The translations under genes were made by a program, and so were the position numbers. Under the pieces are notes generated by a model. It was not told the DNA's origin and searched no databases. It saw nothing but the letters and a program-made list of their open reading frames with translations. Below are positions 9,863 through 36,529 of a DNA stretch of 37,655 nucleotides, in pieces. The stretch is from Candidatus Rifleibacteriota bacterium (GTDB lineage Bacteria > Muiribacteriota > Ozemobacteria > Ozemobacterales > Ozemobacteraceae): the NCBI GenBank assembly GCA_015233155.1, contig JADFYG010000011.1, positions 70,394 through 108,048 on the forward strand, given 5' to 3'. Position 1 is the stretch's first letter. Every line of letters begins with the position of its first letter.

Positions 9863-11890
9863 GTGACAACCAGAAACCTGACCATAGCTTTTACGGATAT
9901 AAAAGGATTCACTGAGCGGACTGCCAATGCCAACCGGGATTTTGTTCTCAGAATCATGGCCAGACACGATGAACTGCTGATGCCGGTTATCCGGCGATAT
10001 CAGGGGCAGTTGATCAAGAAAATCGGCGATGCGTATCTGCTGACATTCGAAAGTCCTACCAATGCAGTTTTGTGCGCTCTCATGATGCAGGAAAAACTCA
10101 AGGAGTATAACCGGACAGCGACCGCCGAAGAAAAGATCGAGATCAGGATTGCCATAAATACCGGCGAAGTGAATATCGTCGGTGCCGACGTAATGGGTGA
10201 GCCGGTCAATGTCGCTTCCCGCGTGGAGGGCATCACCGAGGCGAACGAGGTCTGGTTCACGGAAGCGACGTATCTCGCCATGAACAAGCAGGAAGTGCCT
10301 AACAGTCTTGTGGGAGAGTTCCGATTGAAAGGAGTTCCCGAGGCTCTGAGAGTATATCGCGTGGTCATGGATGCAAGTTCCGATGCGTTTAAACGAACAC
10401 TGGCTGCGCAACAGATACGTATGAACGAGGTTGTTTCGGCAATACCTGATTTTGTGCAAACAGCCGCCGAGACGGATTCTTCCAGGTGGATTCTTTCTGT
10501 CGTGAAGGTTGTTGTGTTGTTGCTAGGTTTGGGCCTCTTATTTCTTCATCTTAGCCGCCCCGATGTCGGTCACTTTGTTCAGATTGCTGAGGAACGCCTT
10601 AAGGCGCATGATTTTGCCGGAGCTCTGACTCAACTGGATCTGGTTTTGAAAGATGATACCGGGAATATTCCGGCTCAGGACCTCGTCCGCCGCATAGTTG
10701 ATGCTTCCTGCCGAGACTCTCTGGAGCGTGGCAATCTGGATGAGGCCCGGCGAATCTTTCTGGAAATGCCTCGGCGCTACCCGTTTCTCGGACCGCAGGA
10801 CTCGCTTGAGGCGTCACTTGTACTTGGCGAGTGCCGTAATATGCTTCAGACAGGGGACAAAGACGATGTCTATGAAAAGATCGATCAGCTCCTGAAAAAC
10901 CAGCACAATAAACCCGAAACGCATTTTGCTGTTGCAAAGTTCTTCAGTGAAACCGGAATAAACTGGCAGCGTACTCTGGATCACCTCCTGATTGCTTTGA
11001 AAGCCAGCTCAGACAGATATTCCAAAGAACCGGTCGTTCAGACGGAGATGGATTATTTCCTTCGCCATGTCACTCCTGACGACGGATATGACGATTTCCG
11101 TTCCTATGTCGCGAATAATGACTTTGAGCAAGTTAAACCTTTGCTTGAACAGAATTTGTACAGTCCTGCCACCGATGCGCGGGCACTGCGATGGAATGCC
11201 CAGCGTATTCTTACCGGGAAGCATTTGCCCGTAGACCTCAGCCGCTTCTATCTCCTCGAACTGCTGGATTCCAACTGTAATCTCCCATCCCGGATGGTTG
11301 ATGAGGCGATGGCCTTCTTTCTGGCAGGCGGGAATCAGGCGTCAGCCGCGGCTATAATTCCAGCAAACATTGACCGGTTTCCACTGCTTGACCGGGAAAC
11401 CCTGGAAGAAAAGACTCATCTGTATCAACTGGTCACAGGCCCGTTCTTTGCCCCTCTTCGTGATTTTCTGGTCCGTTCCCTGGCTGATCGTGCAAATTAT
11501 ACCCGACGGGCTAATGCCTGTCTTATTTTGAAGTTCAGAAAGGAGCTGTCACCTTCTGAAGCTTTGGCGTATCACCTGACAAATCTGCTCTGTTTTGAGG
11601 ACATGATAGGGCCCACTTACTCGCGTGGTTCATGGTATGACTCCATGGACTGGTTAGGGAAAACCGATTTGAATGCCGCCTTCAGTGTTGCAGGCGACTG
11701 CCTCCTCGCCTCAGGAACCACCGTTCTGGCGTTCCCGTCCGTCAGGGCGGAAGCCAAGCAGTTTCTTGCGACTCTTTCTCAGAGCCTCCCTGTGGTCATT
11801 GAGAAGGCAAAAGATCAGAAAAATGAGTTTCAGCAGGAACTCAATCAGAAGATCCTGGGTCTGGTGCAGCAGGTAATCCCAAAGCTCTGA
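9863..11890 (+). CDS. Membrane-anchored class III adenylate/guanylate cyclase with a C-terminal helical-repeat region
   Basis: 675 residues, unusual order: cyclase first, then one membrane span, then a large domain outside the catalytic side. Residues 1-170 are the cyclase: metal aspartates D12 (FTDIKGFT) and D56 (KKIGDAYLL), substrate lysine K53, transition-state N116 and R120 (PVNVASRVEG). The base-contacting Asp of adenylate cyclases is replaced by Glu (E113), so specificity for ATP is likely but not certain. Residues about 209-229 are a hydrophobic span; residues 235-675 are helical with TPR-like texture (AEERLKAHDFAGALTQLD, LERGNLDEARRIF). GTG start at 9863 preceded by AGGAAAGGA. It follows uspA by 50 bp without a terminator, and a strong terminator follows it. 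Confidence 0.87.
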   Translation: MTTRNLTIAFTDIKGFTERTANANRDFVLRIMARHDELLMPVIRRYQGQLIKKIGDAYLLTFESPTNAVLCALMMQEKLKEYNRTATAEEKIEIRIAINTGEVNIVGADVMGEPVNVASRVEGITEANEVWFTEATYLAMNKQEVPNSLVGEFRLKGVPEALRVYRVVMDASSDAFKRTLAAQQIRMNEVVSAIPDFVQTAAETDSSRWILSVVKVVVLLLGLGLLFLHLSRPDVGHFVQIAEERLKAHDFAGALTQLDLVLKDDTGNIPAQDLVRRIVDASCRDSLERGNLDEARRIFLEMPRRYPFLGPQDSLEASLVLGECRNMLQTGDKDDVYEKIDQLLKNQHNKPETHFAVAKFFSETGINWQRTLDHLLIALKASSDRYSKEPVVQTEMDYFLRHVTPDDGYDDFRSYVANNDFEQVKPLLEQNLYSPATDARALRWNAQRILTGKHLPVDLSRFYLLELLDSNCNLPSRMVDEAMAFFLAGGNQASAAAIIPANIDRFPLLDRETLEEKTHLYQLVTGPFFAPLRDFLVRSLADRANYTRRANACLILKFRKELSPSEALAYHLTNLLCFEDMIGPTYSRGSWYDSMDWLGKTDLNAAFSVAGDCLLASGTTVLAFPSVRAEAKQFLATLSQSLPVVIEKAKDQKNEFQQELNQKILGLVQQVIPKL

Positions 11891-17572: not shown

Positions 17573-19777
17573 ATGAGTGAAGAAGTCATCAGGCTGTTGG
17601 AAGAGCTCGAGGATATCTGGTACAGGGGCTCAACAAAAGAGTCTCGACTGGATGGCAACGAAGCTCTGCGAAACAGGTTTTCGAAGCTTTTATCTGATTT
17701 TATGGCGATAAAAAATTTCGTTCGCGCGATGTCTGAAGGCGATCTCTCGCAGGCGCTCAACATAGAAGGAGAATTTGCGGAAAGCTGCAAAAAATTGCAG
17801 AACAACGTACGATATTGGGCCACATTGGCCGATATTATCGATTTCCTGCCGGATGGCACCTTCGTCATCGACCGGGATGGGCGCGTTGTCGTGTGGAATC
17901 GGGCAATCGAAGCAATGACGGGAGTGTCGGCGAAAGATATCGTAGGCAAAGATGATTATGCGCACGGAATCGCTTTCTATGGCAAGAAAAGGCCGGTGCT
18001 GATAGACTATGTAACGCTTTCAGATGAAGAGATTCGCGACAAATACTCCAACCTCACCCGCGTCAGAGATATGTTGTTCGGGGAGGCTTTGATTCCGAAC
18101 CTGCGCGGACATGATCTCTGGATCGAGGGGCGAGCGGCTCCCCTGGAAGATTCTAAGGGAAATCTGATGGGCGCCATCGAGATCGTCCGCGATATCACTG
18201 CACGGGTGGAAAGCGAGCAATCATTACGCGCATCGGAGCAAAGATTGTCTGACATCGTTAATTTCATGCCGGACGCGGTCTTCGTAATCAATCGTGAAGG
18301 AAAGGTTATCATCTGGAACAAGGCAATAGAGAAGCTGAGCAAGGTCAAGGCTGAAGATATTCTCGGCAAGGGAAATCCCGCGTATTCGGCGGCTTTCTAT
18401 GGACAGGAAAGACCGCTGCTCATCGATCTGGTTCTCAACCCAAGCGAGGAGTTCGAAACGAAATACAGCAAATTGCATTTTGAAGACAACGTACTGATAG
18501 GTGAATCCTATCTGCCATTATGGGGACGCGGCACCTATCTTCTTTGTCGCGCATCGGCGCTCCATGATGCGAATGGCAAAATCATAGGTGCCATCGAGAC
18601 GATTCACGATTTCACCTCTCGCAAACGTGCCGAACAGGAGTTGCAAATAGCCAAGGAAGCCGCCGAGGTGGCTAATAAAGTTAAAGGGGAATTTGTGGCC
18701 AACATGAGTCACGAAATCAGGACCCCCTTGAATGCCATTATCGGATTTGCGAATTTGATGCTTCAGACAGAGTTAACGCCGAAGCAGAATGATTTCGTTA
18801 ATAAGATTCAGATTGCGGGTAGTTCCCTTATTGGAATTGTCAATTCAATCCTCGATTTTTCCAAGATAGAAGCAGGAAAAATTGAAATGGAGAAGATCGA
18901 TTTCAATTTGGATAATGTAATAAATAATGTGGTTTCAACCATTAGTTCCAGGGTGAATGATCACGGATCTGAGTTTGTTCTCGACATTTCTCCGGATGTT
19001 CCGCAATATTTAAACGGAGATCCTCTTCGAGTTGAACAAATACTGACTAACCTGATTTCCAACGCCATAAAATTTACGGAAAAAGGTAAAATACTACTGA
19101 AAATAGATCTGATAGATCAGATTGCCGACAAAGCCAGGATTGGCTTCTCAATTCGGGACACGGGCATTGGAATGAGCCAGGATCAAATTGATCGGTTATT
19201 TCAACCATTCACTCAGGCTGATGGTTCCGCCAGTAGAAAATTCGGTGGAACCGGCTTGGGATTGAGCATTTGTAAGCGACTGGTAGAAATGATGGGAGGC
19301 GAAATTTCCGTAGAAAGTCATCTGGGTGGAGGAAGCATATTCCGTTTCTCTGTCTGGCTTTCGATATGTTCAAATAGTAATGCTTCAGGAAAAGTTAAAG
19401 GCTCGATTCCGCATTCCTCCTCTCAGGTTTCGCTGATTCCTGGAATCGATACTCAAAAAGATTTGGCGAGTCTGGAGGGAGGAGATCAGCTCACGAATAT
19501 ATCGAGACCTGCAACAGAGGTTTCAGGATTGGAAAAGGCATCCCAAACCGGTTCCAGAACAATTTCTGATTCCTTGGAAGTTCTTACGGAACTCAGAGAA
19601 AATCTGCAAAACCATGATTTCGATTCCGCTCAACAGTTTGATAAAATCAAGGCCGAATGGGGATCTCTTCTGTCCGGGATCCATGAATTTGACGAAATCG
19701 GGAAAATGATTTCGAAATTCGCCTTCGAAAAGGCCCTGGACTTATTGGAACTTCTTATAAAGAAAGTCAAAAACTGA
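17573..19777 (+). CDS. Cytosolic HAMP-like/PAS/PAS sensor histidine kinase, HPt and receiver missing
   Basis: 734 residues, no membrane span. Order: a HAMP-like helical segment (about 45-80, AMSEGDLSQALNIEGEFAE), two PAS domains (about 85-210 and 222-350), each containing the FYGxxRPxLID insertion typical of a PAS subgroup, then HisKA with phospho-acceptor H380 (SHEIRTPLNAIIGF) and HATPase with N box (NLISNAIKF), G1 (RDTGIGM) and G2 (FGGTGLGLSI). The tail 620-734 begins LIPGID and ends with a module strongly like the end of the hybrid kinase at 22157-24955, but without the receiver and HPt core found there. GAGGTGG six bases before the ATG supports the start. It stops 9 bp from the convergent cyclase gene. 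The ligand is unknown. Confidence 0.92.
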   Translation: MSEEVIRLLEELEDIWYRGSTKESRLDGNEALRNRFSKLLSDFMAIKNFVRAMSEGDLSQALNIEGEFAESCKKLQNNVRYWATLADIIDFLPDGTFVIDRDGRVVVWNRAIEAMTGVSAKDIVGKDDYAHGIAFYGKKRPVLIDYVTLSDEEIRDKYSNLTRVRDMLFGEALIPNLRGHDLWIEGRAAPLEDSKGNLMGAIEIVRDITARVESEQSLRASEQRLSDIVNFMPDAVFVINREGKVIIWNKAIEKLSKVKAEDILGKGNPAYSAAFYGQERPLLIDLVLNPSEEFETKYSKLHFEDNVLIGESYLPLWGRGTYLLCRASALHDANGKIIGAIETIHDFTSRKRAEQELQIAKEAAEVANKVKGEFVANMSHEIRTPLNAIIGFANLMLQTELTPKQNDFVNKIQIAGSSLIGIVNSILDFSKIEAGKIEMEKIDFNLDNVINNVVSTISSRVNDHGSEFVLDISPDVPQYLNGDPLRVEQILTNLISNAIKFTEKGKILLKIDLIDQIADKARIGFSIRDTGIGMSQDQIDRLFQPFTQADGSASRKFGGTGLGLSICKRLVEMMGGEISVESHLGGGSIFRFSVWLSICSNSNASGKVKGSIPHSSSQVSLIPGIDTQKDLASLEGGDQLTNISRPATEVSGLEKASQTGSRTISDSLEVLTELRENLQNHDFDSAQQFDKIKAEWGSLLSGIHEFDEIGKMISKFAFEKALDLLELLIKKVKN

Positions 19778-19786
19778 TGAGAATGA

Positions 19787-20836
19787 TTATTTCAACTTGA
19801 AAACCTTTGTAGGGAATGATTTGCCCTTTAAAAGTATTTCCTGATAAAATTCGAACTCCTGTGTGTCCGGCAATCTGGACAGAACATTCTCCGAGATCAG
19901 AAAGCAGCCTGGAGGAGTTACCGATTCAACGCGACTTGCTGTATTGACCACATCTCCTATTACTGTTTTGTCCTTGCGGAAACTCGCCCCGATATCCCCA
20001 TGAATGAGGCGTCCGGTATTGATGCCGATTCGAACTTTTATTCCGGGAAAGCCCATTTTTTCAAGTTCCTTATTCAAATCGGGCATGGTAATCTCAGTAA
20101 TTTTTTTGGCGGCATCCACTGCATCGAGAGGATTAAGGAATGTGGCCATGATGCAGTCACCAATGAACTTGTCGATATCTCCAAAGTGCTGCTTGATGAC
20201 TTGAGAAGCCACTTCCAGGAAAAGGTTGAGCATTTGAACCATTTTTTCCGGGCCAAGACTTTCCGATAAGGTTGTGAATCCGACGATATCGATAAAGAAT
20301 ATGGTCAACTCCTTGGCGACCGCGAAGATCTTTTCAGGGTTGACGACCGCCTCTTTTACCAGATCATAGGTTGATTCGGAGACATAAAGCTTAATGAGTT
20401 TTTCGAATCTCTCTTTCTGTGTTTCGAGCTCCTGGAGTGTGCTGAGAAGTTTAAGGTGCGTTTTTACCCGCGCAAGAACGACCATGGGAGATATGGGTTT
20501 TGTTATGTAGTCGACACCACCCGCATCGAACCCCTGGACTTCATCATATTCTTCACTTTTTGCCGTCACGAAAATTACCGGAATCCTTCGGGTGTTTGGC
20601 TGCGCTTTCAACTTGCGACAGACATCAAAACCACTGATATCAGGCATCATTACGTCAAGTAAAATGAGATCTGGCGGAAGAGATGACTCAGCCACCTGAA
20701 GAGCTTCTGTGCCATTGAGTGCAACCCGGATTTTGTACTCCGGCGAAAGGATTCGCCCCAGGATTTCTATGTTATCCTGAACATCATCAACGATCAGAAT
20801 AATTTTTCTATCCGGGTTTTTGGGTGTCGTTGCCAT
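19787..20836 (-). CDS. Response regulator with adenylate cyclase output (REC-class III cyclase)
   Basis: 349 residues. Receiver domain 11-130 with phospho-acceptor D61 (ILLDVMMPD), acidic pair D17-D18 and K113 (YITKP). A short coiled segment (about 131-165) links to the cyclase domain (175-349), which has both metal aspartates D183 (FFIDIVGFT) and D227 (FIGDCIM), adenine-recognition K223 and D295 (VIGDVVNTASR), and N298 and R302. Every residue needed for cAMP synthesis is therefore present. GAAGGA lies 9 bases before the ATG. It is 202 bp downstream of the receiver-HD-GYP gene on the same strand, with a repeat hairpin between, so it may be the last gene of the hydrogenase/kinase operon or have its own promoter. 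The two receivers are close paralogues. Confidence 0.94.
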   Translation of the reverse strand: MATTPKNPDRKIILIVDDVQDNIEILGRILSPEYKIRVALNGTEALQVAESSLPPDLILLDVMMPDISGFDVCRKLKAQPNTRRIPVIFVTAKSEEYDEVQGFDAGGVDYITKPISPMVVLARVKTHLKLLSTLQELETQKERFEKLIKLYVSESTYDLVKEAVVNPEKIFAVAKELTIFFIDIVGFTTLSESLGPEKMVQMLNLFLEVASQVIKQHFGDIDKFIGDCIMATFLNPLDAVDAAKKITEITMPDLNKELEKMGFPGIKVRIGINTGRLIHGDIGASFRKDKTVIGDVVNTASRVESVTPPGCFLISENVLSRLPDTQEFEFYQEILLKGKSFPTKVFKLK

Positions 20837-20925
20837 TTCTGTCGGTCCTTCTTTAATGAACGAATAACATCTGGTTTTCCTGTAATTCTAAATCATGATT
20901 AACAAAGTATGCTAACCAATTAGTT

Positions 20926-20990
20926 GAGATTTCTCCCTTCGGTCGAAATGACAGCATTGTTTTTCATTCCGAACGAATGTGAGGAATCTC
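20926..20990. repeat. Imperfect palindromic intergenic repeat
   Basis: A left arm at 20926-20952 (GAGATTTCTCCCTTCGGTCG...) pairs imperfectly with 20964-20990 (ending GTGAGGAATCTC). The wording GAGATTTCTCCCTTCGGTCG is familiar to me from short dispersed repeats in several bacterial phyla. It lies in the 202-bp spacer between two response-regulator genes; nothing else is seen there apart from AT-rich sequence. Confidence 0.72.
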
Positions 20991-21038
20991 GCTTGTCGTA
21001 AAGAATGTGAATATTTAGGCTTCTTTGGTAATCGTGTT

Positions 21039-22160
21039 CTAAATCGATTTCTCCAGGCTTTCTTTTTCTTCTTTTAGTGTGGTATATCGAACGGCTATAT
21101 CCAGAAACTCCTTTTCTATACTTATAAAAGTATCAGTTATCAGCGGATCGAAATGAATTTCTCTTCCTTCGCGAATTATTTGAACCGCTTTTTCGTGGGA
21201 AAATGGAGCCTTGTAACTGCGTTTGCTGATGAGAGCGTCATATACATCGCAAATTGCCATGATCCTACCGGAAACAGGGATTTGCTCTCCACGCAATCCT
21301 TGAGGATATCCCGATCCATCCCATTTTTCATGATGGGAAAAAGCGATTTCACAAGCAATTTCCAGGAAAGAGGAAACCTTTTCCCATCCGATTTCGATGA
21401 CACCGCGAGCAATGGCATCCCGGCCAATGGTGGTGTGGGTTTTAATTATTTCAAATTCCTCAGCACTGAGTTTGCCGGGTTTCAATAGAATGTTGTCACG
21501 AATTCCTATTTTTCCTACATCGTGTAGAGGAGCGGATTTGGAAAGGAGATCGATAGTCTCATCGTTGAGGGAAGTGCGGAAATGAGAGGCCTCTAGCAAG
21601 CGACTGGACAGCAGGCGGACATAGCGCTGTGTTCTCTTGATGTGATCTCCGGTTTCATTATCACGTATCTCTGCCAGAGAAGACAGTGTGTAAATGGTTA
21701 TATCCCGGGTTTTCAGCAACTCCTGCGTCCGTTCACTCACCATTTTTTCAAGGAGACGCTGTTGATTGAATAAATCAAGATGCGTATTGACCCGTGCAAG
21801 AACTATAGGGGGACTGACGGGTTTGGTGATGTAATCAACGCCTCCTGCCGCAAATCCGGAAGTTTCGTCCATTACTTCGTTTTTGGCGGTGACGAAAATT
21901 ATCGGGATTTTTCGAGTCGGGTAATGTTCCTTCAGGCGCCGACAAACTTCGAAGCCGTCGATATCCGGCATCATGACGTCCAGCAGTATTAACTCAATAT
22001 CCGAAAACTTTTCGACTATTTCCAGAGCTTCGGTTCCATTGGAAGCCACGCGAATCGAGAACTGAGTACGCAAAATGCTTCCAAGAATTTCAATATTTTC
22101 CGGAACATCATCTACCACCAAAATACAAGGTTTGCGTTTTGTTTTAATTTCGCCCGTCAT
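21039..22160 (-). CDS. Response regulator with HD-GYP (c-di-GMP phosphodiesterase) output
   Basis: 373 residues. Receiver 11-130 with D61 (LILLDVMMPD) and K113 (ITKP); HD-GYP domain about 155-350 with H213-D214 (LHDVGKIGI), HH at 276-277 and GYP at 284-286 (HHEKWDGSGYPQG, then LRGEQIPVSGRI). These are the full metal and signature residues of active c-di-GMP hydrolases. The ATG overlaps the stop of the hybrid kinase by 4 bp (ATGA), and AAGGTG within the kinase end serves as ribosome site, so kinase and regulator are translationally coupled and very likely a cognate pair. A DNA-binding domain is absent, so the output is enzymatic. Confidence 0.95.
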   Translation of the reverse strand: MTGEIKTKRKPCILVVDDVPENIEILGSILRTQFSIRVASNGTEALEIVEKFSDIELILLDVMMPDIDGFEVCRRLKEHYPTRKIPIIFVTAKNEVMDETSGFAAGGVDYITKPVSPPIVLARVNTHLDLFNQQRLLEKMVSERTQELLKTRDITIYTLSSLAEIRDNETGDHIKRTQRYVRLLSSRLLEASHFRTSLNDETIDLLSKSAPLHDVGKIGIRDNILLKPGKLSAEEFEIIKTHTTIGRDAIARGVIEIGWEKVSSFLEIACEIAFSHHEKWDGSGYPQGLRGEQIPVSGRIMAICDVYDALISKRSYKAPFSHEKAVQIIREGREIHFDPLITDTFISIEKEFLDIAVRYTTLKEEKESLEKSI

Positions 22161-24955
22161 TTTTTCTGCACCTTCTCAATAATGACATCCAGTAATTTCA
22201 AAGCTTTATCAAACATGAATTTTGAAATATTATTTTCAAGCTCTTTGAATTCAGGAAAAGTAGAAAAGGATGAACCCCACTCTTTAGCAATCTTTTCAAA
22301 CTGTTCCGTTGAATCGAAATCGCGGTTTTTAAGATTTTCCCTGAGTTCCAGAAGCATGTTCATGGATTCTGAGATTGGTTGTAAAGGGTGTTCAGCAGGT
22401 TCAGGGCTTGCTTCAATACTCGAAATCCGACTTTTGACTGACTCTATGGCATGGCAGACTTCATTCAATGTAAGCTTCAGCTTTTTCCAGGCCGGATGAA
22501 TTTCAATCTCGTTTTTTTCATTGCTTTTTTTCTCCAATACTTCCGCGGTATTGAAAACATCCATCATTCCCAGATTACCTGCTGTACCCTTCAAAGTATG
22601 TGCTAGAAAAGATGTTCTTTCAAAATTAGTATTAGTGATAGCCGCATCGAGATCGCCGATCATCTTAGGTTTGGAGGCCAGAAACTTAAGCAAAAGAACC
22701 TTATAACTGGCGGAATTCCCCGCAAACCGCTCCAATCCCCTTCGAATATCGATTCCCGGGATCTGTGGCATAGCGGAAGACGAAGATGGTTGCGAGATTA
22801 TTGCTTCCCTTGTTTCCCCGGAAACTTTCTTCAGATACTTTTGAAGCGTTATTCTCAAATGATTGGGATCTATCGGCTTCGATATATGGTCATTCATTCC
22901 GGCACTGAACGCTTTATTTCGATCTTCCGCGAAAGCATTTGCGGTCATCGCGAGAATGGGTAATTGATTAAAATGAGCATTTTGTCTGATTCTTCTGGTC
23001 GCCTCATAGCCATCCATTTCCGGCATCTGAATATCCATCAGGACGAGGTCGAAATATCCCGGCGGATTTACCATGATTTTTGAAATAGCCTCCATGCCGG
23101 TATTTGCTATATCTACGGTAATTCCCCAACTTTCAAGCAGTTCTCTTGCTATCTGTTGGTTGAAATCATTGTCTTCGGCCAGCAGTACTCGATGATCCTG
23201 GAAATATTTTATAAGTCCGGATTCCTTTGTCTTTCCCATGAGCGCCAGTCCGTCTTGTGGAGAAAAAATCCGGAGAATAGCATCATAAAGAGTCGAAACT
23301 GTGAATGGCTTGAAGAGTATATCGTTGACTCCGGCTTCTACAAGTTTTTTCTTTGCTTCCACCCCGATGAATGATGAAATCATGACTATCGATGGAACAC
23401 ATTGAGAAGGAAAATCCTGCTTTACTTCCTCAATCATTTGAATTTCATCATGGCTGGGAATTTTATTCTCTATAAGAATAAGTTTATATGGATCCTTGAA
23501 TAGATTTTTCCGCATTTCAGTCATTGCGTCCCTTGTCGAACAAAAAGTATTTATGCGGAATGGAAACCTTTTTAGCATTTTCTGAATGACCTGCTGCATA
23601 GTGGAATTACTATTCAGCAGCAGCACCTGAAGACCATTCAGGAGCTGTGGAATAACCCTGTTAAGGGGGTTCTCCTCGGAACTGATTTTAAACCAAACCG
23701 AAAATCCGAATGTACTTCCTGTCGCCAGCTGGCTTTTTACGTAAACTTTGCCATCCATGATTTCAATCAGTCGTTTGCAAATACTCAACCCCAGACCTGT
23801 ACCCCCGAATTTACGAGTCATGGAGCCATCAGCCTGAATAAAGGGTTGAAAAAGCTTGTTCAACTGCTCCTGAGTCATACCAATACCGGTATCACGGACG
23901 GAAAATTCAATCTTTGCTTTCTCTCCAACCCGCTCCAGGAGATCTATCTTCAGCTCCAGCTCCCCTTTTTCAGTAAACTTGACCGCATTTGAAACCAGGT
24001 TTATCAGTATTTGCCCTAATCGGATGGGATCACCAACCAGATATCGCGGAATATCAGGGGATATGTCGAGCAGAAATTCCAACCCCTTGTCATGAACTCT
24101 GGGAGAAATAAGCGAAATAACGTTATTGATAACGTGGTCCAGTTCAAAATCAATATGCTCGATGTCCATTTTTCCGGCTTCAATTTTGGAAAAATCAAGA
24201 ATATCATTTATCAGACGCAACAATGAACCACTGGCAATTTGAATTTTACTCAGATACTCCAGTTGTTTCTGGGATGAATCAGTTTGCATGGCTAGATTCG
24301 TAAACCCTATAATAGCGTTCATCGGGGTTCGAATCTCATGACTCATGTTGGCCAGAAATTCGCTCTTGTATCTGTTCGCATCGATAATTTCCTGCTCGGC
24401 TATTTTTCGCTGAGTGATATCCATTGCTGCGCAAAGAAAACCACTGACAGAATTATCTGGTCCTGGAATCGAAGTTATCGAAAGAGTTACTGGAAAGCGC
24501 GACCCGTCTTTCCTTACGTAAATCCATTCTTCTTCACTCGCAACTTCCTTTTTAGCGTATTCCAGGAAAATGTTCATTCCATCCAGTCGTCGATTCAGGT
24601 TTTCTTCCAACAACTTCCGGCGTGATTCCAACTGAGATTTCTCGTGAAATATGTCCGGAGTGAGCTTTCCGATAGCTTCATCCCTGGAATATCCCAGCAT
24701 TCCCTCGGCACCCGAATTGAAAAGAAGAATGGTGCCATTCAAATCAGCCGCAATGATCGAAATGCGAGATGCTGCATTTAGAACAGCCTTCTGACTTGCA
24801 TTAACCACCTGAAGCCGCTGAAGGAATTCATCTGTTTGTTTGAACTGTTCGACGATGAGTTTTGATGTGAACTCAGCCGCATCCCTGGAAACCTTGACTT
24901 CACGTCGAAGGGTTTCCCGTTCCTCGATTATCTGGCGAAGTTCATCGAAATCCAT
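22157..24955 (-). CDS. Soluble PAS hybrid histidine kinase (PAS-HisKA-HATPase-pseudoREC-REC-HPt)
   Basis: 932 residues without a membrane span. Coiled N-terminus (1-55); PAS (about 58-185); HisKA with H206 (MSHEIRTPMNAIIGF); HATPase (about 305-425; NLVSNAVKF, RDTGIGM, FGGTGLGLS); a degenerate receiver (about 441-565) where the phospho-Asp position is Glu496 (LILIENKIP); an intact receiver (about 588-708; D595, D641, K693); HPt with H786 (AHTLKGTAGN); and a 70-residue helical tail shared with the kinase at 17573-19777. ATG preceded by AAGGA at 7 bases. It lies 28 bp after the hydrogenase maturation protease and overlaps the HD-GYP regulator. The layout is that of a phosphorelay whose sensor could receive the state of the adjacent hydrogenase; that link is inferred. 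Confidence 0.95.
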   Translation of the reverse strand: MDFDELRQIIEERETLRREVKVSRDAAEFTSKLIVEQFKQTDEFLQRLQVVNASQKAVLNAASRISIIAADLNGTILLFNSGAEGMLGYSRDEAIGKLTPDIFHEKSQLESRRKLLEENLNRRLDGMNIFLEYAKKEVASEEEWIYVRKDGSRFPVTLSITSIPGPDNSVSGFLCAAMDITQRKIAEQEIIDANRYKSEFLANMSHEIRTPMNAIIGFTNLAMQTDSSQKQLEYLSKIQIASGSLLRLINDILDFSKIEAGKMDIEHIDFELDHVINNVISLISPRVHDKGLEFLLDISPDIPRYLVGDPIRLGQILINLVSNAVKFTEKGELELKIDLLERVGEKAKIEFSVRDTGIGMTQEQLNKLFQPFIQADGSMTRKFGGTGLGLSICKRLIEIMDGKVYVKSQLATGSTFGFSVWFKISSEENPLNRVIPQLLNGLQVLLLNSNSTMQQVIQKMLKRFPFRINTFCSTRDAMTEMRKNLFKDPYKLILIENKIPSHDEIQMIEEVKQDFPSQCVPSIVMISSFIGVEAKKKLVEAGVNDILFKPFTVSTLYDAILRIFSPQDGLALMGKTKESGLIKYFQDHRVLLAEDNDFNQQIARELLESWGITVDIANTGMEAISKIMVNPPGYFDLVLMDIQMPEMDGYEATRRIRQNAHFNQLPILAMTANAFAEDRNKAFSAGMNDHISKPIDPNHLRITLQKYLKKVSGETREAIISQPSSSSAMPQIPGIDIRRGLERFAGNSASYKVLLLKFLASKPKMIGDLDAAITNTNFERTSFLAHTLKGTAGNLGMMDVFNTAEVLEKKSNEKNEIEIHPAWKKLKLTLNEVCHAIESVKSRISSIEASPEPAEHPLQPISESMNMLLELRENLKNRDFDSTEQFEKIAKEWGSSFSTFPEFKELENNISKFMFDKALKLLDVIIEKVQKK

Positions 24956-24983
24956 TTGTTTTCCTTTTCAGCCCCTGGGACAG

Positions 24984-25568
24984 TCAATTATCAATTCTGA
25001 AATAATTATTCTCTGAAATTCGTAAACAAGCCTCTGTAACGGCTCTTATCGAGGAGGCATCGACTTTCCCTTCTCGGCCGACCAGGATAATCTCCGGAAC
25101 TTCTGATTCCAGGACTTCGGGGAGAATCCTGAGGAGGTATCCAAGACCATTTGAATGGGAGAACGAGACGTCCATATTTTGTGCAACCCTTATTGCATCA
25201 AGAATAATTACCTCATTTTCTGCATTGAAACCGCATAGCGAATCCACAAGAATCACCCTGTCTATTTTCTCGAAAAATCTGATAAGATTCAGGCCCTGCA
25301 AACCTCCGTCAATTACTTCGATAGTATCGGGCAGGGACTTGTTCTTCAATGACTTGAATACCATGGGACCCAAATCATCGCCGGAAACCATATCGTTGCC
25401 GACGCACACGATCCTGGTTTTTTTTGTATTTTCTTTCGAGATCCTTGCAATATTCCTGAAATGAAAAAACTGACGCAATCGCCGAGCGCGCGATATCAGG
25501 CATTGACGAGTTCGGTGGCCCCGCTCCGCAAGTTTCGGAAGCAATTTCGTATTAAACATATTTGTCAT
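24984..25568 (-). CDS. [NiFe] hydrogenase maturation protease (HycI/HybD family)
   Basis: Nickel-dependent endopeptidase that trims the C-terminus of the hydrogenase large subunit after metal insertion. Family landmarks: VCVGNDMVSGDDLG (55-66), IDGGLQGLNLI (86-96) and a histidine in SFSHSNGLG (H138). By comparison with HybD the likely nickel ligands are D65 (Glu in HybD), D87 and H138. The N-terminal 50 residues are a basic extension not usual in the family, so the real start may be later, but I see no better start with a ribosome site; ATG 25559 is equally possible. It begins 16 bp after the large-subunit gene. Confidence 0.85.
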   Translation of the reverse strand: MTNMFNTKLLPKLAERGHRTRQCLISRARRLRQFFHFRNIARISKENTKKTRIVCVGNDMVSGDDLGPMVFKSLKNKSLPDTIEVIDGGLQGLNLIRFFEKIDRVILVDSLCGFNAENEVIILDAIRVAQNMDVSFSHSNGLGYLLRILPEVLESEVPEIILVGREGKVDASSIRAVTEACLRISENNYFRIDN

Positions 25569-25584
25569 TTAATTGGGGCTGAAT

Positions 25585-27099
25585 CTATTTTTCACGGCGA
25601 ATGGCATGTACACTGCAAACCATGCATGAATCAAAAGATCTTATAACATGGCCGATTTCAATGGGATTATCAATATCCCTGACTTCGGTGCCGATCAAGG
25701 CTTCTTCCCAGGGACCTCTCACGCCTTTGGAATCACGGGGGGAGCCGTTCCAGGCTGTCGGAGTAATGATCTGGTAATGAGTTATCTTCCCGTTATTCAA
25801 TTTTACCCAATGCCCTAGCGCTCCTCGAGCAGCCTCAATGAGACCAAAACCTTCACCCTGGGTTATCGGTTTTGGTGGAATGTAATATTTCTGCCCTTCC
25901 AGATCAAGCTCGGAAAGCCACGCATCAATAATTGGAAGAAAAAGGGCCGGTCTTACGAGTCGGGCGAGCTCCCGCGCAAACACACTGGACCCGTCTTTTC
26001 CGATCATTTCGGAAAACAACGGGTCTCGCCTGATTACAGCTTCTGCAAGAGGTCCGGTTTCTGAAGGAAGGCCATCATATCGGGGGGCTTTCGCCCAGGA
26101 GTATTTTTGGCTTTCCTTTCCTGTGGCATAAGGGATCGTGCTTCCCTGGAACGGGTGTTGAGCTTCATCGGGGCCCTGGAACCAGGAATGGGAAATATCT
26201 TCAGCAATCATTTGCTGAATAAACGATTTTTCGCCTGCTACAGATACGAAGCCAGCCGGAACGAACTTGAGGCCATTGGAAACTCCTCTCACTTCCGTGT
26301 CCTTGGGTAATCCAAAAGCCCCGAAACTGATGAAATTACCATAACCCATTCCAATTTTGTTCAAGCCGGCTTCACGAGAGAATCGGGTATAAAAGCCAAC
26401 TTCGCTGTTCAAATGCGACTCATCTTCAGCAAGCCAATTTTCAAAATCAGAAACGCTTTTCACGGCATTCCATCGTTCGATACTGCATCCCAAAAATCGC
26501 TTTTCATACCACTTGCGGAAGCGGGAAAGAATTTGTCTGGCCAGACAAATATCGTTGATGCTTGGAATCGAGGCGATGCCGCCCGGGACCATAAAGGATG
26601 TATGCGGCCACTGGCCGCCAAAAATAGCAATGATCTCAAGAACCCTTTTGGTTTCCTTGATTGTGTCAATTACCACCTGCCCCTTGAATGGCTCATAACG
26701 TTGAAATGCTTCCTGGAACAGGGAATTTTTCTGATAGGAAGGGTTGATAAAATCGGGGGCAAACATCAAAGAATAATGTCGCACATCGCTTTGGATGTGT
26801 TCGACCATGGTGGCAATATTGCGAATTCTCAAAGCATTATCCGGAATATCGATTCCTGCGATCATATCCAGGGCCGTTGCAGCCGCTGACAGATGACTTA
26901 TGCAGCATATTCCGCAAATTCTCGGGGTAATCACGAGGCCGTCGAGAGCACCTCGCCCCTGCATGATTTTCTCGAACCCACGGAACATGGTTCCTGAACT
27001 CCAGGAGTCATCCACGATATGGTCATTTATGGAAACCCTTATTTCGAGGTCACCTTCAACCCGATTCAGGGGAACTACGCACGTCACTTTTTCGCCCAT
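25585..27099 (-). CDS. [NiFe] hydrogenase large (catalytic) subunit, group-2-like
   Basis: Carries the NiFe(CN)2CO active site. 504 residues from ATG 27099, with GGAG six bases upstream; a GTG at 27111 is the alternative. L1 motif R60-I-C62-G-I-C65 and L2 motif D490-S-C492-M-V-C495-S-V-H498 supply the four metal cysteines; RVEGDLEI near the start (13-20) is the usual conserved glutamate region. After H498 only six residues remain (AIRREK), a very short cleavable tail, consistent with the protease gene just downstream. The overall wording resembles cyanobacterial-type or sensory group 2 enzymes, but I cannot place the subgroup without a tree. It follows the small subunit by 45 bp. Confidence 0.94.
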   Translation of the reverse strand: MGEKVTCVVPLNRVEGDLEIRVSINDHIVDDSWSSGTMFRGFEKIMQGRGALDGLVITPRICGICCISHLSAAATALDMIAGIDIPDNALRIRNIATMVEHIQSDVRHYSLMFAPDFINPSYQKNSLFQEAFQRYEPFKGQVVIDTIKETKRVLEIIAIFGGQWPHTSFMVPGGIASIPSINDICLARQILSRFRKWYEKRFLGCSIERWNAVKSVSDFENWLAEDESHLNSEVGFYTRFSREAGLNKIGMGYGNFISFGAFGLPKDTEVRGVSNGLKFVPAGFVSVAGEKSFIQQMIAEDISHSWFQGPDEAQHPFQGSTIPYATGKESQKYSWAKAPRYDGLPSETGPLAEAVIRRDPLFSEMIGKDGSSVFARELARLVRPALFLPIIDAWLSELDLEGQKYYIPPKPITQGEGFGLIEAARGALGHWVKLNNGKITHYQIITPTAWNGSPRDSKGVRGPWEEALIGTEVRDIDNPIEIGHVIRSFDSCMVCSVHAIRREK

Positions 27100-27144
27100 C
27101 TCACACTCCACTAAGAGGTTTTCACGCTGAAAGTTAAATGGCTG

Positions 27145-28083
27145 TCATATCTTGGTAATACGCTTTATCAGTCTGTCCGGTGCCGATGCGGCTGCTATGC
27201 TCTTGAAAGCCATATAATGAGCTCGATCTAATCCCTTTGGAAGCAGAATTGGAAGTCCTTCGATGTTTGGTGTTTCGAAAAAAGGATATTTTCGCGGGAA
27301 GTCCGGGGAAGTGCATCCGAAGCATGGAACACCAACCCGTGTTTTGGATGACCGGCGATTCCAGAGTATTTTATTGCAGGGGCCGAACACCAGGGGACCG
27401 TAACAACCCTTGAAGAAAAACAGACATCCCTTTTCTCCGAAATCCTTTTCTTCGATGCGGTATTCATGATACTCGTTTCTTGTGCAACCTTGATGAACGA
27501 GCATTCCATACCATTCAACCGGTCTGTTGAATTCGTCAAGTTCAAGGGGGACGTTTTCAACCAAAGCCGATAGTGTACCTCTTACAGCTTCGCAGTGACA
27601 AGGACATCCGGAAATATTTATGACGGGAAGGCCGCCCCTTGCCTTGAAGTTTTCTCCCAGGAAGCCGCCTTTTTTTTCTTTGTGGAACATCAACCCGGTT
27701 GCCTCTATTTCCCCATCGCTTCCGATCCCGCCAAAGCTTGCGCAGGTGCCTACGGCAATGACAACCTCGGCTTTCTGGGCCAGACCGGCAATCAAATCTT
27801 TTTTGGGAGTTCCATCAAAAGCCTGAAACATCCCCGTGCCGCCCGGGCCACGAATGACAGAGCCTTCTACACAAAGTATATCCAGGCGTACTTTATCTGA
27901 AAGTATTTGCTCATTTATACTGTTATACTCACTGAACTTGTATGTTGACAAAGACGGATGCCAAAGCAGCTCAAGTTGCAAATAATCGAAAAACTCGAGA
28001 GTGTCCGGAGATTCCATGTTCAACAGGGACATCGTGTCACCACCACATCCGCCAGCGGTTAACCAGTAAAGCGATTTTCCCAT
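27145..28083 (-). CDS. [NiFe] hydrogenase small (iron-sulfur) subunit, cytosolic, group-2-like
   Basis: 312 residues from ATG 28083, chosen because AGGAGG lies four bases upstream; the upstream in-frame extension to 28140 lacks such a site. There is no twin-arginine signal and no C-terminal anchor, so the enzyme is cytosolic. LYWLTAGGCGGDTMSLLN and LLWHPSLS match group 2 small subunits. Proximal cluster ligands: C13, C114 and C160, with Asp16 where a cysteine is usual. Distal cluster: H197, C200, C220, C227. Medial: C236, C254, C257. It is the first gene of the hydrogenase-kinase run. No cytochrome b, quinone-linked or diaphorase gene is nearby. Confidence 0.94.
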   Translation of the reverse strand: MGKSLYWLTAGGCGGDTMSLLNMESPDTLEFFDYLQLELLWHPSLSTYKFSEYNSINEQILSDKVRLDILCVEGSVIRGPGGTGMFQAFDGTPKKDLIAGLAQKAEVVIAVGTCASFGGIGSDGEIEATGLMFHKEKKGGFLGENFKARGGLPVINISGCPCHCEAVRGTLSALVENVPLELDEFNRPVEWYGMLVHQGCTRNEYHEYRIEEKDFGEKGCLFFFKGCYGPLVFGPCNKILWNRRSSKTRVGVPCFGCTSPDFPRKYPFFETPNIEGLPILLPKGLDRAHYMAFKSIAAASAPDRLIKRITKI

Positions 28084-28183: not shown

Positions 28184-28804
28184 CTACTCGTCGTGAATGA
28201 CTATTAGGCGATTACCCTGGACGTCGTGGGTCACGCGCGTGTGTTTGTCAAGCTTCAAGGACTCGATCATTTGGGAAACATCTGCTGCGCGGGCGTTCTG
28301 TAGAGAAATTATCTCGAACGAGACGCGAGTAGGCTGTGCCTCCTCCGCAAGAATTAGCTTGATGCGCCCATGGTCCTCGTAAGTAAGGCCATTGGCGCGG
28401 GCAATGAATTGAATCAGTTCGAGCGTGTCCATGTCCGTGACGCGGCAGCTGAGACGGCCGGAGACTTTCGGAGATATCATAAGATTAATGTGGCCGCGCT
28501 GTGCCAAATCCATCAACACCTGACGCAGATCGGCATCGCGAACGTCGAGAAGAGGTGTAGCGTTAGACGCATCGCCGTTGCGGTAGTCCTGAGGCGGCTC
28601 TGCGCGATGTGCCCATGGAAGTTCGTCCGGAGCGGCAATCGCGAGAGGACATGTAATTCCCGCTAAACCGAAAAAGAATATAACAAGAGTAACTTGCATA
28701 ATCCGCATAACAATTCGCCCATTTTGGGGCGAGGTATACCACGCACCTGTAAGAATATATCGTGAATTAGTCATGGCTCTGACATGTGTGAAAAACAGCT
28801 TCAT
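28184..28804 (-). CDS. Stand-alone secretin N0/N1-domain protein (truncated GspD/PilQ-like)
   Basis: 206 residues, exported. A good signal peptide runs from M33 (MRIMQVTLVIFFFGLAG to IAA), so translation may start at 28708, although ATG 28804 overlaps the FHA gene stop by 4 bp and may be used. The mature part contains an N0/STN-type domain (about 80-150, LLDVRDADLRQVLMDLAQRG and LELIQFIARANGLTYE) and the start of an N1-type domain (VSFEIISLQNARAADVSQMI to GNRLIVIHDE). A normal secretin would continue for 300 or more residues with further N domains and the outer-membrane barrel; here the frame stops and no barrel sequence follows in any frame, and an element end lies right after the stop. It is either a decayed secretin or a specialised periplasmic adaptor. 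Confidence 0.82.
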   Translation of the reverse strand: MKLFFTHVRAMTNSRYILTGAWYTSPQNGRIVMRIMQVTLVIFFFGLAGITCPLAIAAPDELPWAHRAEPPQDYRNGDASNATPLLDVRDADLRQVLMDLAQRGHINLMISPKVSGRLSCRVTDMDTLELIQFIARANGLTYEDHGRIKLILAEEAQPTRVSFEIISLQNARAADVSQMIESLKLDKHTRVTHDVQGNRLIVIHDE

Positions 28805-30414
28805 ATCCGCTCCAGAATTTCAATTTTATATGGAGTTCCTCCGAGAGAGAGGGTGTCGCCGGACTTGATTTGCTGAGGTTTGGTTATTTTCGTTCCGTTA
28901 ACTTCCGTTACATTGTTTTGGGCAAGCGGAGTGACAATGAATGAATCAATGACAAGCGCTATGGTAACGTGCAGGCGACTGACTTCAGAGGCTGTCAGGA
29001 CTACGACATTGCTGGAACGACGTCCGATGGATATTTCCGCCGCCTTGCCTTCAAATCTGCGGCCTGATTGGTCGCTGATCACTATATGAATGCTGGTTCC
29101 CAATACTCCATGAACTGATTTATTGATGAGAGTCGCCTGTTCACCCGTATCTCCGGCGGCTGTGGAAGAGTCAGCCGGTAATGCACGTGGAGAAGGTGTC
29201 GTTTTTGATGATCCCGGAGAGAAGGCAACCTCAGACTTTGCAGAGATGGAAGTCGGTCTGGACACGCTTTTCCCTTCCTGGTGGCCTTTTTCTTTACTGG
29301 CAGCCGCTTCAGCAACGGGCTTTTCTTGCGAAACTGGCGATGATGGCTGCGCCTCGGGTGCAGGTGGTACGACTGGTGAAGCTGATACTATCGGTGCAAT
29401 CGGTTCAACAGGTGTAACAGCAGGTTTAACCGGCGTAACCGACGCCGTTCGGGAAGTCGGCTCCAGGGGCGGTACCCCGGAAACATCAGGAATCGTCGGC
29501 GCGAGCTTTGTCGGAGTGCCCGTCTTGCCGAGAGAGGTGGCTTCGGAAGCCATGGATCCCGTTTCAGAACCAATCGGAGCAGGATAATTCAAATGAGGGG
29601 AAGAAACCTCAGGCGCTGTCGAAGCTTCAGGCCTCGGCTCGGGATGTACCGTCACCGCTCCCGTTTGTGCAGGTTTAGTTCCAGGCTCGGAAATGTCTGA
29701 ACCTGTTATTGCTGATGTCACACTTTCCTCGGTCGGCGTGGCGGCTGGCGGAGATGTATCGTGCTGCGATTGCGGCGTTATTGGAGCAGAACCCTTCTGA
29801 GCTTCCGGGAAGTAGTTCGATCGTACTTTTTCCAGTTCCTCGTAGTTCAAAAAAAGCGAGCGCGTGGACATCAATACGACGGATTGCTTCTGGTGTCGCC
29901 AAAAATAAGCAGCAATAACGGCCAGAAGCAGAGCGCCGATCAAAAGATGCAGATGATAGCTTTTCTTGGCTTCGGGAGCGACAAACTGTATGTGTCCGGA
30001 AAGATCGCTTCCAGTGGATTTCAAAATGATCTCCGTCTCGGACGACAATTTAGTGGCGAGAAATTTTAGTCCGATTGTTCTGGTCTTTCCGGTTGGATTC
30101 TGTATTTCAACTATGCCGTCGGTTATAACCTGGACATCCGGGGTCGGATCAACTGCTCCCATGAACTGAATTTTTTTGCCATCGAACACCAGTCGGGCTG
30201 TGCCAGAGTCTTGCGGCACGAAGCCGGTTTCCACGACGAACAATAATCCGGGCTCACTTTGTGAGGGAACATTCAATGTGGCGGCCTGAACGGGGAAATG
30301 CCACATAAAGACGGCCAGAAAAGCAAAAAACATGGCTTTTGTAAATAATCCTGATATGACGGAATATCGGGAGCATGATTTTGCATGAACCTCATATGTC
30401 GAAAAATTATCCAT
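28801..30414 (-). CDS. Membrane protein with extracytoplasmic beta domain, Pro-rich linker and C-terminal FHA domain
   Basis: About 537 residues. A hydrophobic N-terminal signal (about 28-46, FFAFLAVFMWHFPVQA) precedes a beta-rich exported domain (47-150), a membrane span (about 157-174, LHLLIGALLLAVIAAYFW), a 230-residue Pro/Ser/Thr-rich disordered linker, and an FHA domain at the end (EISIGRRSSNVVVL, SRLHVTIAL, NGTKITKPQQIKSGDTLSLGG). FHA domains bind phosphothreonine or act as assembly modules. Start ambiguous: ATG 30414 or TTG 30420 with AGGACAGG upstream. It is coupled to the secretin-like gene by ATGA and lies 61 bp after the AsmA/TamB-like gene. FHA-plus-secretin pairs occur in secretion and pilus systems; the function here is unknown. 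Confidence 0.82.
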   Translation of the reverse strand: MDNFSTYEVHAKSCSRYSVISGLFTKAMFFAFLAVFMWHFPVQAATLNVPSQSEPGLLFVVETGFVPQDSGTARLVFDGKKIQFMGAVDPTPDVQVITDGIVEIQNPTGKTRTIGLKFLATKLSSETEIILKSTGSDLSGHIQFVAPEAKKSYHLHLLIGALLLAVIAAYFWRHQKQSVVLMSTRSLFLNYEELEKVRSNYFPEAQKGSAPITPQSQHDTSPPAATPTEESVTSAITGSDISEPGTKPAQTGAVTVHPEPRPEASTAPEVSSPHLNYPAPIGSETGSMASEATSLGKTGTPTKLAPTIPDVSGVPPLEPTSRTASVTPVKPAVTPVEPIAPIVSASPVVPPAPEAQPSSPVSQEKPVAEAAASKEKGHQEGKSVSRPTSISAKSEVAFSPGSSKTTPSPRALPADSSTAAGDTGEQATLINKSVHGVLGTSIHIVISDQSGRRFEGKAAEISIGRRSSNVVVLTASEVSRLHVTIALVIDSFIVTPLAQNNVTEVNGTKITKPQQIKSGDTLSLGGTPYKIEILERI

Positions 30415-30475
30415 GATCAAATTTCTGGCCTGTCCTTTCCGGGGTCTACGGCTCCGAAAAATACCCGCAAGATTG

Positions 30476-36258: not shown

Positions 36259-36288
36259 GACTCATGTGCGGGGTGCCGCACATGAGTC
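36259..36288. repeat. Perfect 13-bp stem hairpin
   Basis: GACTCATGTGCGG (36259-36271), loop GGTG, then CCGCACATGAGTC. It lies in the 367-bp spacer between the divergent GspF-like and CRP-like genes, 96 bp upstream of the former. No T run follows on either strand, so it is more likely a REP-type palindrome or a protein site than a terminator. Confidence 0.7.
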
Positions 36289-36314
36289 CTGTGCAAAGAA
36301 CCGCTGCCGGAAGT

Positions 36315-36415: not shown

Positions 36416-36529
36416 TTATATACCATTCCCCAGTTTTTAGTGCGCCTGCCCTGCCTCATTGTCGTTAAATTTGCCTTTATCGCCCGGGTTATGCAATACT
36501 GCATCAAGTGCAATGTGGGAGAGCTCGCC

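What the first reader, a model, noticed from the sequence alone, without database searches (positions are those of the whole stretch)
19787..28083. Candidate H2-sensing module wired to c-di-GMP and cAMP
Seen: one strand carries small subunit, large subunit, maturation protease, soluble PAS hybrid kinase with HPt, a 4-bp-overlapping receiver-HD-GYP, and receiver-adenylate cyclase, with short gaps (45, 16, 28, -4 and 202 bp). The hydrogenase lacks a Tat signal and any electron-transfer partner gene. Known: regulatory hydrogenases HupUV/HoxBC pass H2 status to the PAS kinase HoxJ and then to an NtrC-type DNA-binding regulator. Inferred: here the same kind of sensor could control second-messenger enzymes instead of a transcription factor, through a phosphorelay to two receivers. 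I know of no described H2 sensor with paired HD-GYP and cyclase outputs.
Basis: partly seen in the sequence, partly recalled or inferred. Interest (0 to 1): 0.93.

Follow-up and report, generated by a model that had tools for sequence, protein, structure and literature searches.

The report
Hydrogen sensor with swappable signalling outputs
These genes encode a nickel-iron hydrogenase that likely senses hydrogen gas and is predicted to dock, through a short helix found at the start of 57 partner proteins each encoded beside such a hydrogenase, onto a kinase that would control the cell messengers c-di-GMP and probably cAMP.

Summary
The six-gene cluster is real and was read correctly. Its hydrogenase falls in one clade (SH-aLRT 100) with Methylobacter and Ideonella rows, i.e. 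HydDB group 2c, already proposed to sense H2 through c-di-GMP; it lies apart from 2a/Huc and HoxC (2b) rows. The general idea is thus in print; the wiring is the variant. Here the hydrogenase is followed by a hybrid kinase or, in 5 of 56 loci, a diguanylate cyclase, and the partner begins with a 44-residue helical signature. All 57 copies found lie beside such a large subunit, including 16 of 16 in 1,221 genomes not chosen for it; 13 related GGDEF-EAL/Vibrio-type loci lack it. I read it as the hydrogenase-docking element (inferred). A c-di-GMP or cyclase gene sits in the partner or within 4 kb downstream in 18 of 32 testable loci, against 0 of 23 uptake loci. The HD-GYP gene overlaps the kinase gene by 4 bp and is the likely main output; cyclases stand beside the module in 2 of 56 loci, so the cAMP arm is weaker. 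HypD and HypF were not found in this 84%-complete bin. No step has been tested biochemically.

The parts
27145..28083 (-). hydrogenase small subunit (312 aa form; ORF extends to 28140)
   Evidence: PF01058 + PF14720; starts MGKSLYWL like relatives, conserved cluster Cys
25585..27111 (-). [NiFe] hydrogenase large subunit, group 2c clade
   Evidence: PF00374; L1 RICGICCISH, L2 SFDSCMVCSVH, 6-aa tail AIRREK; tree
24984..25568 (-). hydrogenase maturation protease
   Evidence: PF01750 and TIGR00072, both above cut-off
22157..24955 (-). PAS-HisKA-HATPase-REC(degenerate)-REC-HPt hybrid kinase
   Evidence: Pfam; H206, D641 and H786 motifs intact, first receiver Asp replaced by Glu
24800..24931 (-). 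44-residue N-terminal signature helix of the kinase (residues 9-52), predicted hydrogenase-docking element
   Evidence: alignment A2; genome searches; adjacency; predicted helix 3-62, low confidence over the signature
21039..22160 (-). REC-HD-GYP response regulator, predicted c-di-GMP phosphodiesterase, overlapping the kinase gene by 4 bp
   Evidence: PF00072 + PF13487; HD and HHExxxGxGYP motifs; best PDB relative 4r8z, cyclic di-GMP phosphodiesterase
19787..20836 (-). REC-class III cyclase, predicted adenylate cyclase
   Evidence: PF00072 + PF00211; D183, K223, D227, T291, N298, R302; CyaB 3r5g among PDB relatives
17573..19777 (+). PAS-PAS-HisKA-HATPase kinase, convergent with the cyclase gene, without the signature helix; possible second input
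   Evidence: Pfam; 58% identity over 281 aa to the other kinase; no signature match

Best explanation
The genes encode a soluble [NiFe] hydrogenase of the group 2c clade that likely senses H2 and is predicted to pass its state, through a conserved 44-residue N-terminal helix, to a PAS hybrid kinase that would phosphorylate a REC-HD-GYP protein, a predicted c-di-GMP phosphodiesterase, and probably a REC-adenylate cyclase. Shown here from sequence: gene order, domains and catalytic motifs; clade membership; the signature in the partner protein of 57 of 57 loci found, whether kinase or diguanylate cyclase. Inferred: H2 is the ligand; the helix binds the hydrogenase, most likely its small subunit; the kinase autophosphorylates (H206) and relays to its second receiver (D641), its HPt (H786) and then the receiver of the HD-GYP protein, whose gene overlaps by 4 bp. 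Less certain: that the same HPt also feeds the cyclase receiver, which is 60% identical to the HD-GYP receiver. Whether H2 raises or lowers kinase activity is unknown.
For: Clade: 51-row clade (SH-aLRT 100, quick tree) holding the window, the GGDEF-EAL-linked Methylobacter/Ideonella rows and the kinase-linked rows, apart from the 2a/Huc rows (99) and two HoxC rows (100). Signature: a profile grown from the window alone finds one copy in each of 38 of 38 loci and no other ORF of 90 sources at E up to 1; 41 copies in 38 genomes, each beside one of 41 matching large subunits; in 1,221 genomes not chosen for the hydrogenase, 16 new copies, 16 of 16 beside a large subunit or a fragment of one (contexts). 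Output-independent: 46 kinases, 5 diguanylate cyclases, 5 cut copies among 56 loci; 35 other kinase genes and 14 other GGDEF genes in those loci lack it. Output enzymes in 18 of 32 loci against 0 of 23 uptake loci. Clade-specific residues: 14 of 312 in the small subunit, 3 of 508 in the large. HypD in 33 of 37 relatives' genomes.
Against: HypD and HypF were not found in the window's own genome; it is 84% complete and holds other nickel-hydrogenase genes, so incompleteness is likely but not shown. 13 loci of the same 51-row clade (GGDEF-EAL or Vibrio type) lack the signature, and in the wider tree they branch inside the signature rows with weak support (85, 81), so the signature is not needed for every group 2c partner. 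14 of 32 testable loci have no c-di-GMP or cyclase enzyme within 4 kb downstream. Cyclases adjoin the module in 2 of 56 loci. The helix model has pLDDT of only 51-62 at residues 21-60. R16 of the signature is His in six later copies. In some searches at most 18 candidates per genome were scored, so copies elsewhere may have been missed. Nothing biochemical.
Confidence: 0.66

Rival explanations
1. Same H2-sensing kinase, but only the HD-GYP protein is its output; the cyclase is controlled by the convergent PAS-PAS kinase at 17573-19777 or by several kinases.
For: The cyclase is 202 bp downstream while the HD-GYP gene overlaps the kinase by 4 bp; the second kinase has no regulator of its own among the neighbouring ORFs scanned and a core 58% identical to the first; cyclases adjoin the module in 2 of 56 loci.
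Against: Same strand and tandem order; the two receivers are 60% identical; L026 has a REC-cyclase gene directly before the small subunit on the same strand.
Confidence: 0.4
2. The hydrogenase is a bioenergetic uptake enzyme with an unlinked electron acceptor; the kinase beside it serves other signals and the enzyme is not the sensor.
For: Closest solved structures are the Huc uptake enzyme; the large subunit keeps a C-terminal tail and a protease gene, as uptake enzymes do and the two HoxC rows do not.
Against: The tree separates it from 2a/Huc; signature in the partner of 57 of 57 loci; the tail is lost in 5 loci, all without a protease gene. Redox partner genes were not searched for systematically in the relatives.
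Confidence: 0.15
3. The signature is only a coiled coil that dimerises the kinases or cyclases, and its linkage to the hydrogenase reflects descent of one operon rather than docking.
For: Heptad-like hydrophobic spacing and a predicted long helix; all signature rows fall in one larger clade of large subunits.
Against: The signature persists while the output state changes: 11 changes on the large-subunit tree counting loci without an output gene as a state, 4 among the three output types alone; charged E11 and polar Q29 are invariant and R16 nearly so; 35 other kinases in the same loci lack it.
Confidence: 0.25
4. The module is decaying or unmatured in this organism because the Hyp machinery is gone.
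For: HypD and HypF not found.
Against: Open reading frames and metal ligands intact; other Ni-hydrogenase genes in the genome; bin 84% complete.
Confidence: 0.1

Closest known systems
HydDB [NiFe] group 2c, 'Diguanylate cyclase-linked (putative)' (PMC5037454, passages; 2c in Methylobacter genomes, PMC12810054, passages; Thiomargarita enzyme with Methylobacter best match, PMC4853749, passages)
   Same: Same large-subunit clade; small subunit-large subunit-protease-signalling gene order; c-di-GMP link
   Different: GGDEF-EAL partner in 8 of 13 rows of the Methylobacter/Ideonella/Vibrio group (4 kinases, 1 cut) without the signature; here a hybrid-kinase phosphorelay with separate REC-HD-GYP and REC-cyclase, and the signature helix
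Group 2b regulatory hydrogenase HoxBC/HupUV with HoxJ/HupT (L095, L096; PMC6978683 and PMC5665086, passages)
   Same: Soluble hydrogenase beside a PAS-type kinase; logic of sensing
   Different: The two HoxC rows have no C-terminal tail and no protease directly after them; kinases of 480 and 477 aa as ORFs, too short for a hybrid with HPt, have another N-terminus; a sigma-54 regulator stands beside L095
Huc (group 2a uptake hydrogenase, PDB 7uus/7utd)
   Same: Nearest solved large subunit, aligned over residues 12-502
   Different: Separate clade; no same-strand kinase, GGDEF, EAL, HD-GYP or cyclase gene within 7 kb downstream in 23 of 23 loci
BarA-type hybrid kinases; PleD-like and HD-GYP response regulators
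   Same: Domain order and motifs
   Different: Soluble, with the hydrogenase-linked helix and a PAS domain at the N-terminus

Membership tests
HydDB group 2c | Large subunit in one clade with Methylobacter/Ideonella rows | tested here: met
   SH-aLRT 100 for 51 rows; that these very rows are HydDB 2c is inferred from the papers, HydDB's classifier was not available
HydDB group 2c | L2 motif SFDxCLVCTVH (as quoted in PMC4853749) | tested here: inconclusive
   window SFDSCMVCSVH: two conservative differences
HydDB group 2c | Linked to a c-di-GMP enzyme | tested here: met
   REC-HD-GYP overlapping the kinase gene; a phosphodiesterase type rather than a diguanylate cyclase
Group 2b (HoxBC/HupUV) | Falls with HoxC in the tree | tested here: not met
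   HoxC rows form a separate branch, support 100 (two rows only)
Group 2b (HoxBC/HupUV) | No C-terminal tail and no protease (recalled; seen in L095, L096) | tested here: not met
   6-aa tail and adjacent protease gene
Group 2b (HoxBC/HupUV) | Ile/Phe pair narrowing the gas channel (positions recalled) | tested here: not met
   Ile68 is present but also in 33 of 33 2a-type rows; Met116 where both HoxC rows have Phe
Group 2a / Huc uptake | Falls in the 2a/Huc clade | tested here: not met
   2a/Huc rows form a separate 32-row clade, support 99
HD-GYP c-di-GMP phosphodiesterase | HD and HHExxxGxGYP motifs | tested here: met
   H213-D214 and residues 276-286
HD-GYP c-di-GMP phosphodiesterase | Hydrolysis of c-di-GMP | not testable with these tools
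   needs an enzyme assay
Class IIIb adenylate cyclase | Two metal Asp, Lys/Thr base pair, Asn..Arg (rule recalled) | tested here: met
   D183, D227, K223, T291, N298, R302
H2 sensor | H2-dependent kinase activity | not testable with these tools
   needs reconstitution

The most novel reading that the evidence does not exclude
A 44-residue N-terminal helix is a portable hydrogenase-docking tag. Any signalling enzyme that carries it comes under H2 control, and evolution has swapped kinases, diguanylate cyclases and, through phosphorelays, HD-GYP proteins and adenylate cyclases behind one hydrogenase. In this bacterium, probably of a Riflebacteria lineage, the tag wires H2 to both c-di-GMP breakdown and cAMP synthesis.
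Probability: 0.42. Interest if true: 0.82.

Novelty: new variant of a known kind. Interest (0 to 1): 0.66.

Why it matters
HydDB (2016) lists group 2c as 'putative' with an 'undetermined role' (passage). A conserved, output-independent partner helix gives a concrete, deletable and transferable element with which to test that role. If right, it shows how a metalloenzyme can serve as a detachable gas-sensing subunit for different signalling enzymes, offers a tag for building H2-responsive kinases or cyclases, and predicts that H2 sets c-di-GMP levels in many uncultured anaerobes.

Tried and rejected
A scan of genome contigs with the single large-subunit sequence found nothing; the alignment A1 found relatives, of which the tool kept the best 80 of 583, so the locus set is a capped list. 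Filing under 2b or 2a was tested and rejected on the tree. I tried to extend the signature to the Methylobacter/Ideonella/Vibrio group and to HoxJ: the model drifted into the PAS domain and also matched an unrelated PAS kinase in L028, so I draw no conclusion.

Papers. Searches whose listings showed no description of this kinase-linked arrangement or of the helix: (open-licence PMC only; listings, plus passages of the papers named). The paper that founded group 2c is not held, so prior mention of kinase linkage there cannot be excluded. PMC12727194 (passages) lists histidine-kinase, EAL/GGDEF and chemotaxis-protein gene clusters among neighbours of [NiFe] large subunits in general, so such neighbourhoods are known at table level.

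Mended on re-reading the calls: the signature rows are not a proven clade of their own (in one search the GGDEF-EAL/Vibrio rows branch inside them with weak support; those rows were set as outgroup by me); R16 is not invariant beyond the 26 aligned rows; the kinase and cyclase stops are 9 bp apart. None of these moved my odds.

Limits of the counts: loci are related, so the Fisher values overstate significance. The test looks 4 kb past the partner gene, the control 7 kb past the large subunit. 32 of 56 loci had enough flank; L016 is counted among the 57 only through. Two short large subunits (L119, L123) were dropped from the tree. L032 has a cyclase-domain gene on the other strand 5.7 kb from its partner gene, not counted. 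Domain calls in loci rest on my own small profiles built from window and locus sequences, spot-checked by Pfam for four locus proteins.
Full report
OBSERVATION. The six genes are present as described with the domains claimed. Gaps of 45, 16, 28, -4 and 202 bp follow from starts at 28083 for the small subunit and 27099 for the large subunit. The kinase carries intact H-box, ATP-binding, second-receiver and HPt motifs, but its first receiver has Glu at the phospho-acceptor position. The HD-GYP and cyclase catalytic motifs are intact. The cyclase has Lys and Thr at the base-reading positions, as in class IIIb adenylate cyclases (the Lys/Thr rule is recalled). PDB relatives are a cyclic di-GMP phosphodiesterase, 4r8z, for the HD-GYP protein, and PleD receivers plus CyaB and other adenylate cyclases for the cyclase protein. 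Hydropathy gives no sign of membrane segments; the highest value, 1.70, lies in the cyclase's catalytic domain.

WHICH HYDROGENASE. The closest solved structures are Huc, but in a quick tree of 91 large subunits the window lies in a 51-row clade (SH-aLRT 100) that also holds Methylobacter, Methylomonas, Gallionellaceae, Ideonella and Vibrio-family rows. The 2a/Huc rows (32 rows, 99) and the two HoxC rows (100) lie elsewhere. The set was the best 80 of 583 relatives in one collection plus a few others. In the 13-row Methylobacter/Ideonella/Vibrio group the next signalling gene encodes a GGDEF-EAL protein in 8, a kinase in 4, and is cut in 1; the Ideonella plasmid record names it a bifunctional diguanylate cyclase/phosphodiesterase. 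HydDB assigns 2c enzymes to Methylobacter genomes (PMC12810054, passages), and a Thiomargarita enzyme whose best match is Methylobacter was called 2c (PMC4853749, passages). HydDB describes 2c as putatively sensing H2 through c-di-GMP (PMC5037454, passages).

THE PARTNER SIGNATURE. Reading the N-termini of the proteins encoded after the hydrogenase showed that in the window and its nearer relatives they begin alike, whether they continue as PAS kinases, kinases without PAS, or bare GGDEF proteins. A profile grown in four rounds from the window alone found one copy in each of 38 of 38 loci, and no other ORF of the 90 sources searched reached E 1; the 13 GGDEF-EAL/Vibrio-type loci have none. The 26-row alignment has 44 columns with E11, R16 and Q29 invariant; in six copies found later R16 is His (L121, L122, L123, L138, L140, L141). 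In the 38 genomes there are 41 copies: 35 genomes with one and three with two. The second copies lie beside second large subunits, and the 41 copies match 41 large subunits of the clade, three of them in pieces or partial. These genomes were chosen for the hydrogenase. The fair test is in genomes that were not: 37 others of the window's phylum held by the tool and 1,184 drawn from three other phyla (searched 39, 395, 398 and 396; seven were already). They gave 16 new copies, and all 16 lie directly after a large subunit or, in L119, a fragment of one (for nine, for seven). In some searches the tool scored at most 18 candidates a genome, so the absence of stray copies is not complete proof. Distances from the large subunit run from -229 to +1329 bp over 56 loci. 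Of these 56 proteins 46 are kinases, 5 are diguanylate cyclases and 5 are cut. In the same loci 35 other kinase genes and 14 other GGDEF genes lack the signature. Pfam has no family there. A 15-row model predicts one helix from residue 3 to 62, with low confidence over most of the signature (mean pLDDT 51-62 at residues 21-60), as a monomer model of an interface helix may show.

WHY DOCKING. The signature is the only element I saw shared by partners with different outputs. On the large-subunit tree the output state changes 11 times if loci without an output gene count as a state, and 4 times among the three output types alone, while the signature stays. That tree was rooted on five GGDEF-EAL/Vibrio rows by my choice; in the wider tree those rows branch inside the signature rows with weak support (85, 81), so one lineage may have lost or rebuilt the signature. 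Residues conserved in the signature loci but not in the GGDEF-EAL/Vibrio rows or in 2a concentrate in the small subunit: 14 of 312 positions against 3 of 508. Several are in its C-terminal part (P267, F268, H289, 296, A298, L305). This is inference from sequence; the alternative that the helix only dimerises the partner is kept as a rival.

OUTPUTS. Of 56 loci, 32 have at least 4 kb after the partner gene. In 18 of them the partner or a same-strand neighbour within 4 kb carries GGDEF, EAL, HD-GYP or a cyclase domain, and in 14 none does. In 23 uptake loci with 7 kb after the large subunit none does. Two of the 14 have such a gene upstream (L026 REC-cyclase, L120 HD-GYP). REC-GGDEF is the commonest (12 of 56). 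HD-GYP follows in the window and in L038, L041, L122, L140 and L141, and REC-HD-GYP stands 2.2 kb on in L139. Cyclases adjoin the module in the window and L026; L032 has one 5.7 kb off on the other strand. The 4-bp overlap of kinase and HD-GYP genes is mirrored by kinase and REC-GGDEF genes in L031 and L144 (all -3). The HD-GYP and cyclase receivers of the window are 60% identical, which allows but does not show a common donor. The genome has 18 GGDEF matches, 17 over the cut-off, so c-di-GMP is likely made there.

MATURATION. Tail length after the last metal motif tracks the protease: with a protease gene 4-18 residues (29 loci), without 0-24 (27 loci); all five loci with no tail lack the protease. 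The window has 6 residues and a protease. HypD was not found in the window's genome and HypF only as a 34-bit match far below its cut-off; the bin is 84% complete and has other nickel-hydrogenase genes. HypD is present in 33 of 37 relatives' genomes. I take its absence as incompleteness, without proof.

ORGANISM. Nearest named HD-GYP relatives are Candidatus Riflebacteria (70% and 62%) and Ozemobacteraceae (58%), whereas named large-subunit relatives come from other phyla. The lineage is probably Riflebacteria; no marker gene was tested. Only 2 of 39 genomes of the window's phylum held here carry the signature, so the hydrogenase part was probably acquired, while the HD-GYP regulator looks native.

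VERDICT. A real, conserved candidate H2-sensor module of group 2c in a phosphorelay variant, with a newly noticed candidate docking helix. The sensing role is likely and untested; the c-di-GMP arm is well supported by linkage; the cAMP arm is plausible but rests on two loci.

Noticed in passing
L012 9599-13701 + (window's own genome, contig C141): A second hydrogenase of [NiFe(Se)] type, small subunit with a Tat-type start and large subunit without a C-terminal tail, is followed with a 4-bp overlap by a methyl-accepting chemotaxis protein with a CxxCH haem-type motif before its HAMP domain: a candidate H2-taxis pair.
   Followed up: partly
window 17573-19777 +: Convergent PAS-PAS kinase, 58% identical in its core to the hydrogenase-linked kinase and sharing its C-terminal tail (47% over 89 aa), but without receiver or HPt.
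   Followed up: partly
window 9863-11890 + and 36266-37195 +: A second protein with a class III cyclase domain and a protein with a cyclic-nucleotide-binding domain (CRP-like, below NCBIfam's cut-off) lie in the same window.
   Followed up: no
L018 1427-4399, L039 5544-8561, L042 5937-8930, L115 12803-15769, L118 8332-11322: In five desulfobacterial-type loci a kinase of 988-1005 aa stands just before the group 2c module (a lone receiver between in L039); in four of them (not seen in L042) it follows a second hydrogenase with its protease. Its N-terminus, read in L018 and L039, looks like an RND-type membrane protein.
   Followed up: no
large subunits of the signature loci: C-terminal tail length and presence of the protease gene vary together; five loci have neither, as in the two group 2b rows.
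   Followed up: partly
L011 8309-11164 - (G037 contig C326): The other genome of the same phylum with the signature also holds a large subunit split over two frames (group not tested) next to a kinase with a HoxJ-like N-terminus.
   Followed up: no
window 28184-30420 -: Upstream of the hydrogenase on the same strand lie a short protein with a weak secretin-N match (below cut-off) and an FHA-domain protein, possibly secretion or pilus genes.
   Followed up: no
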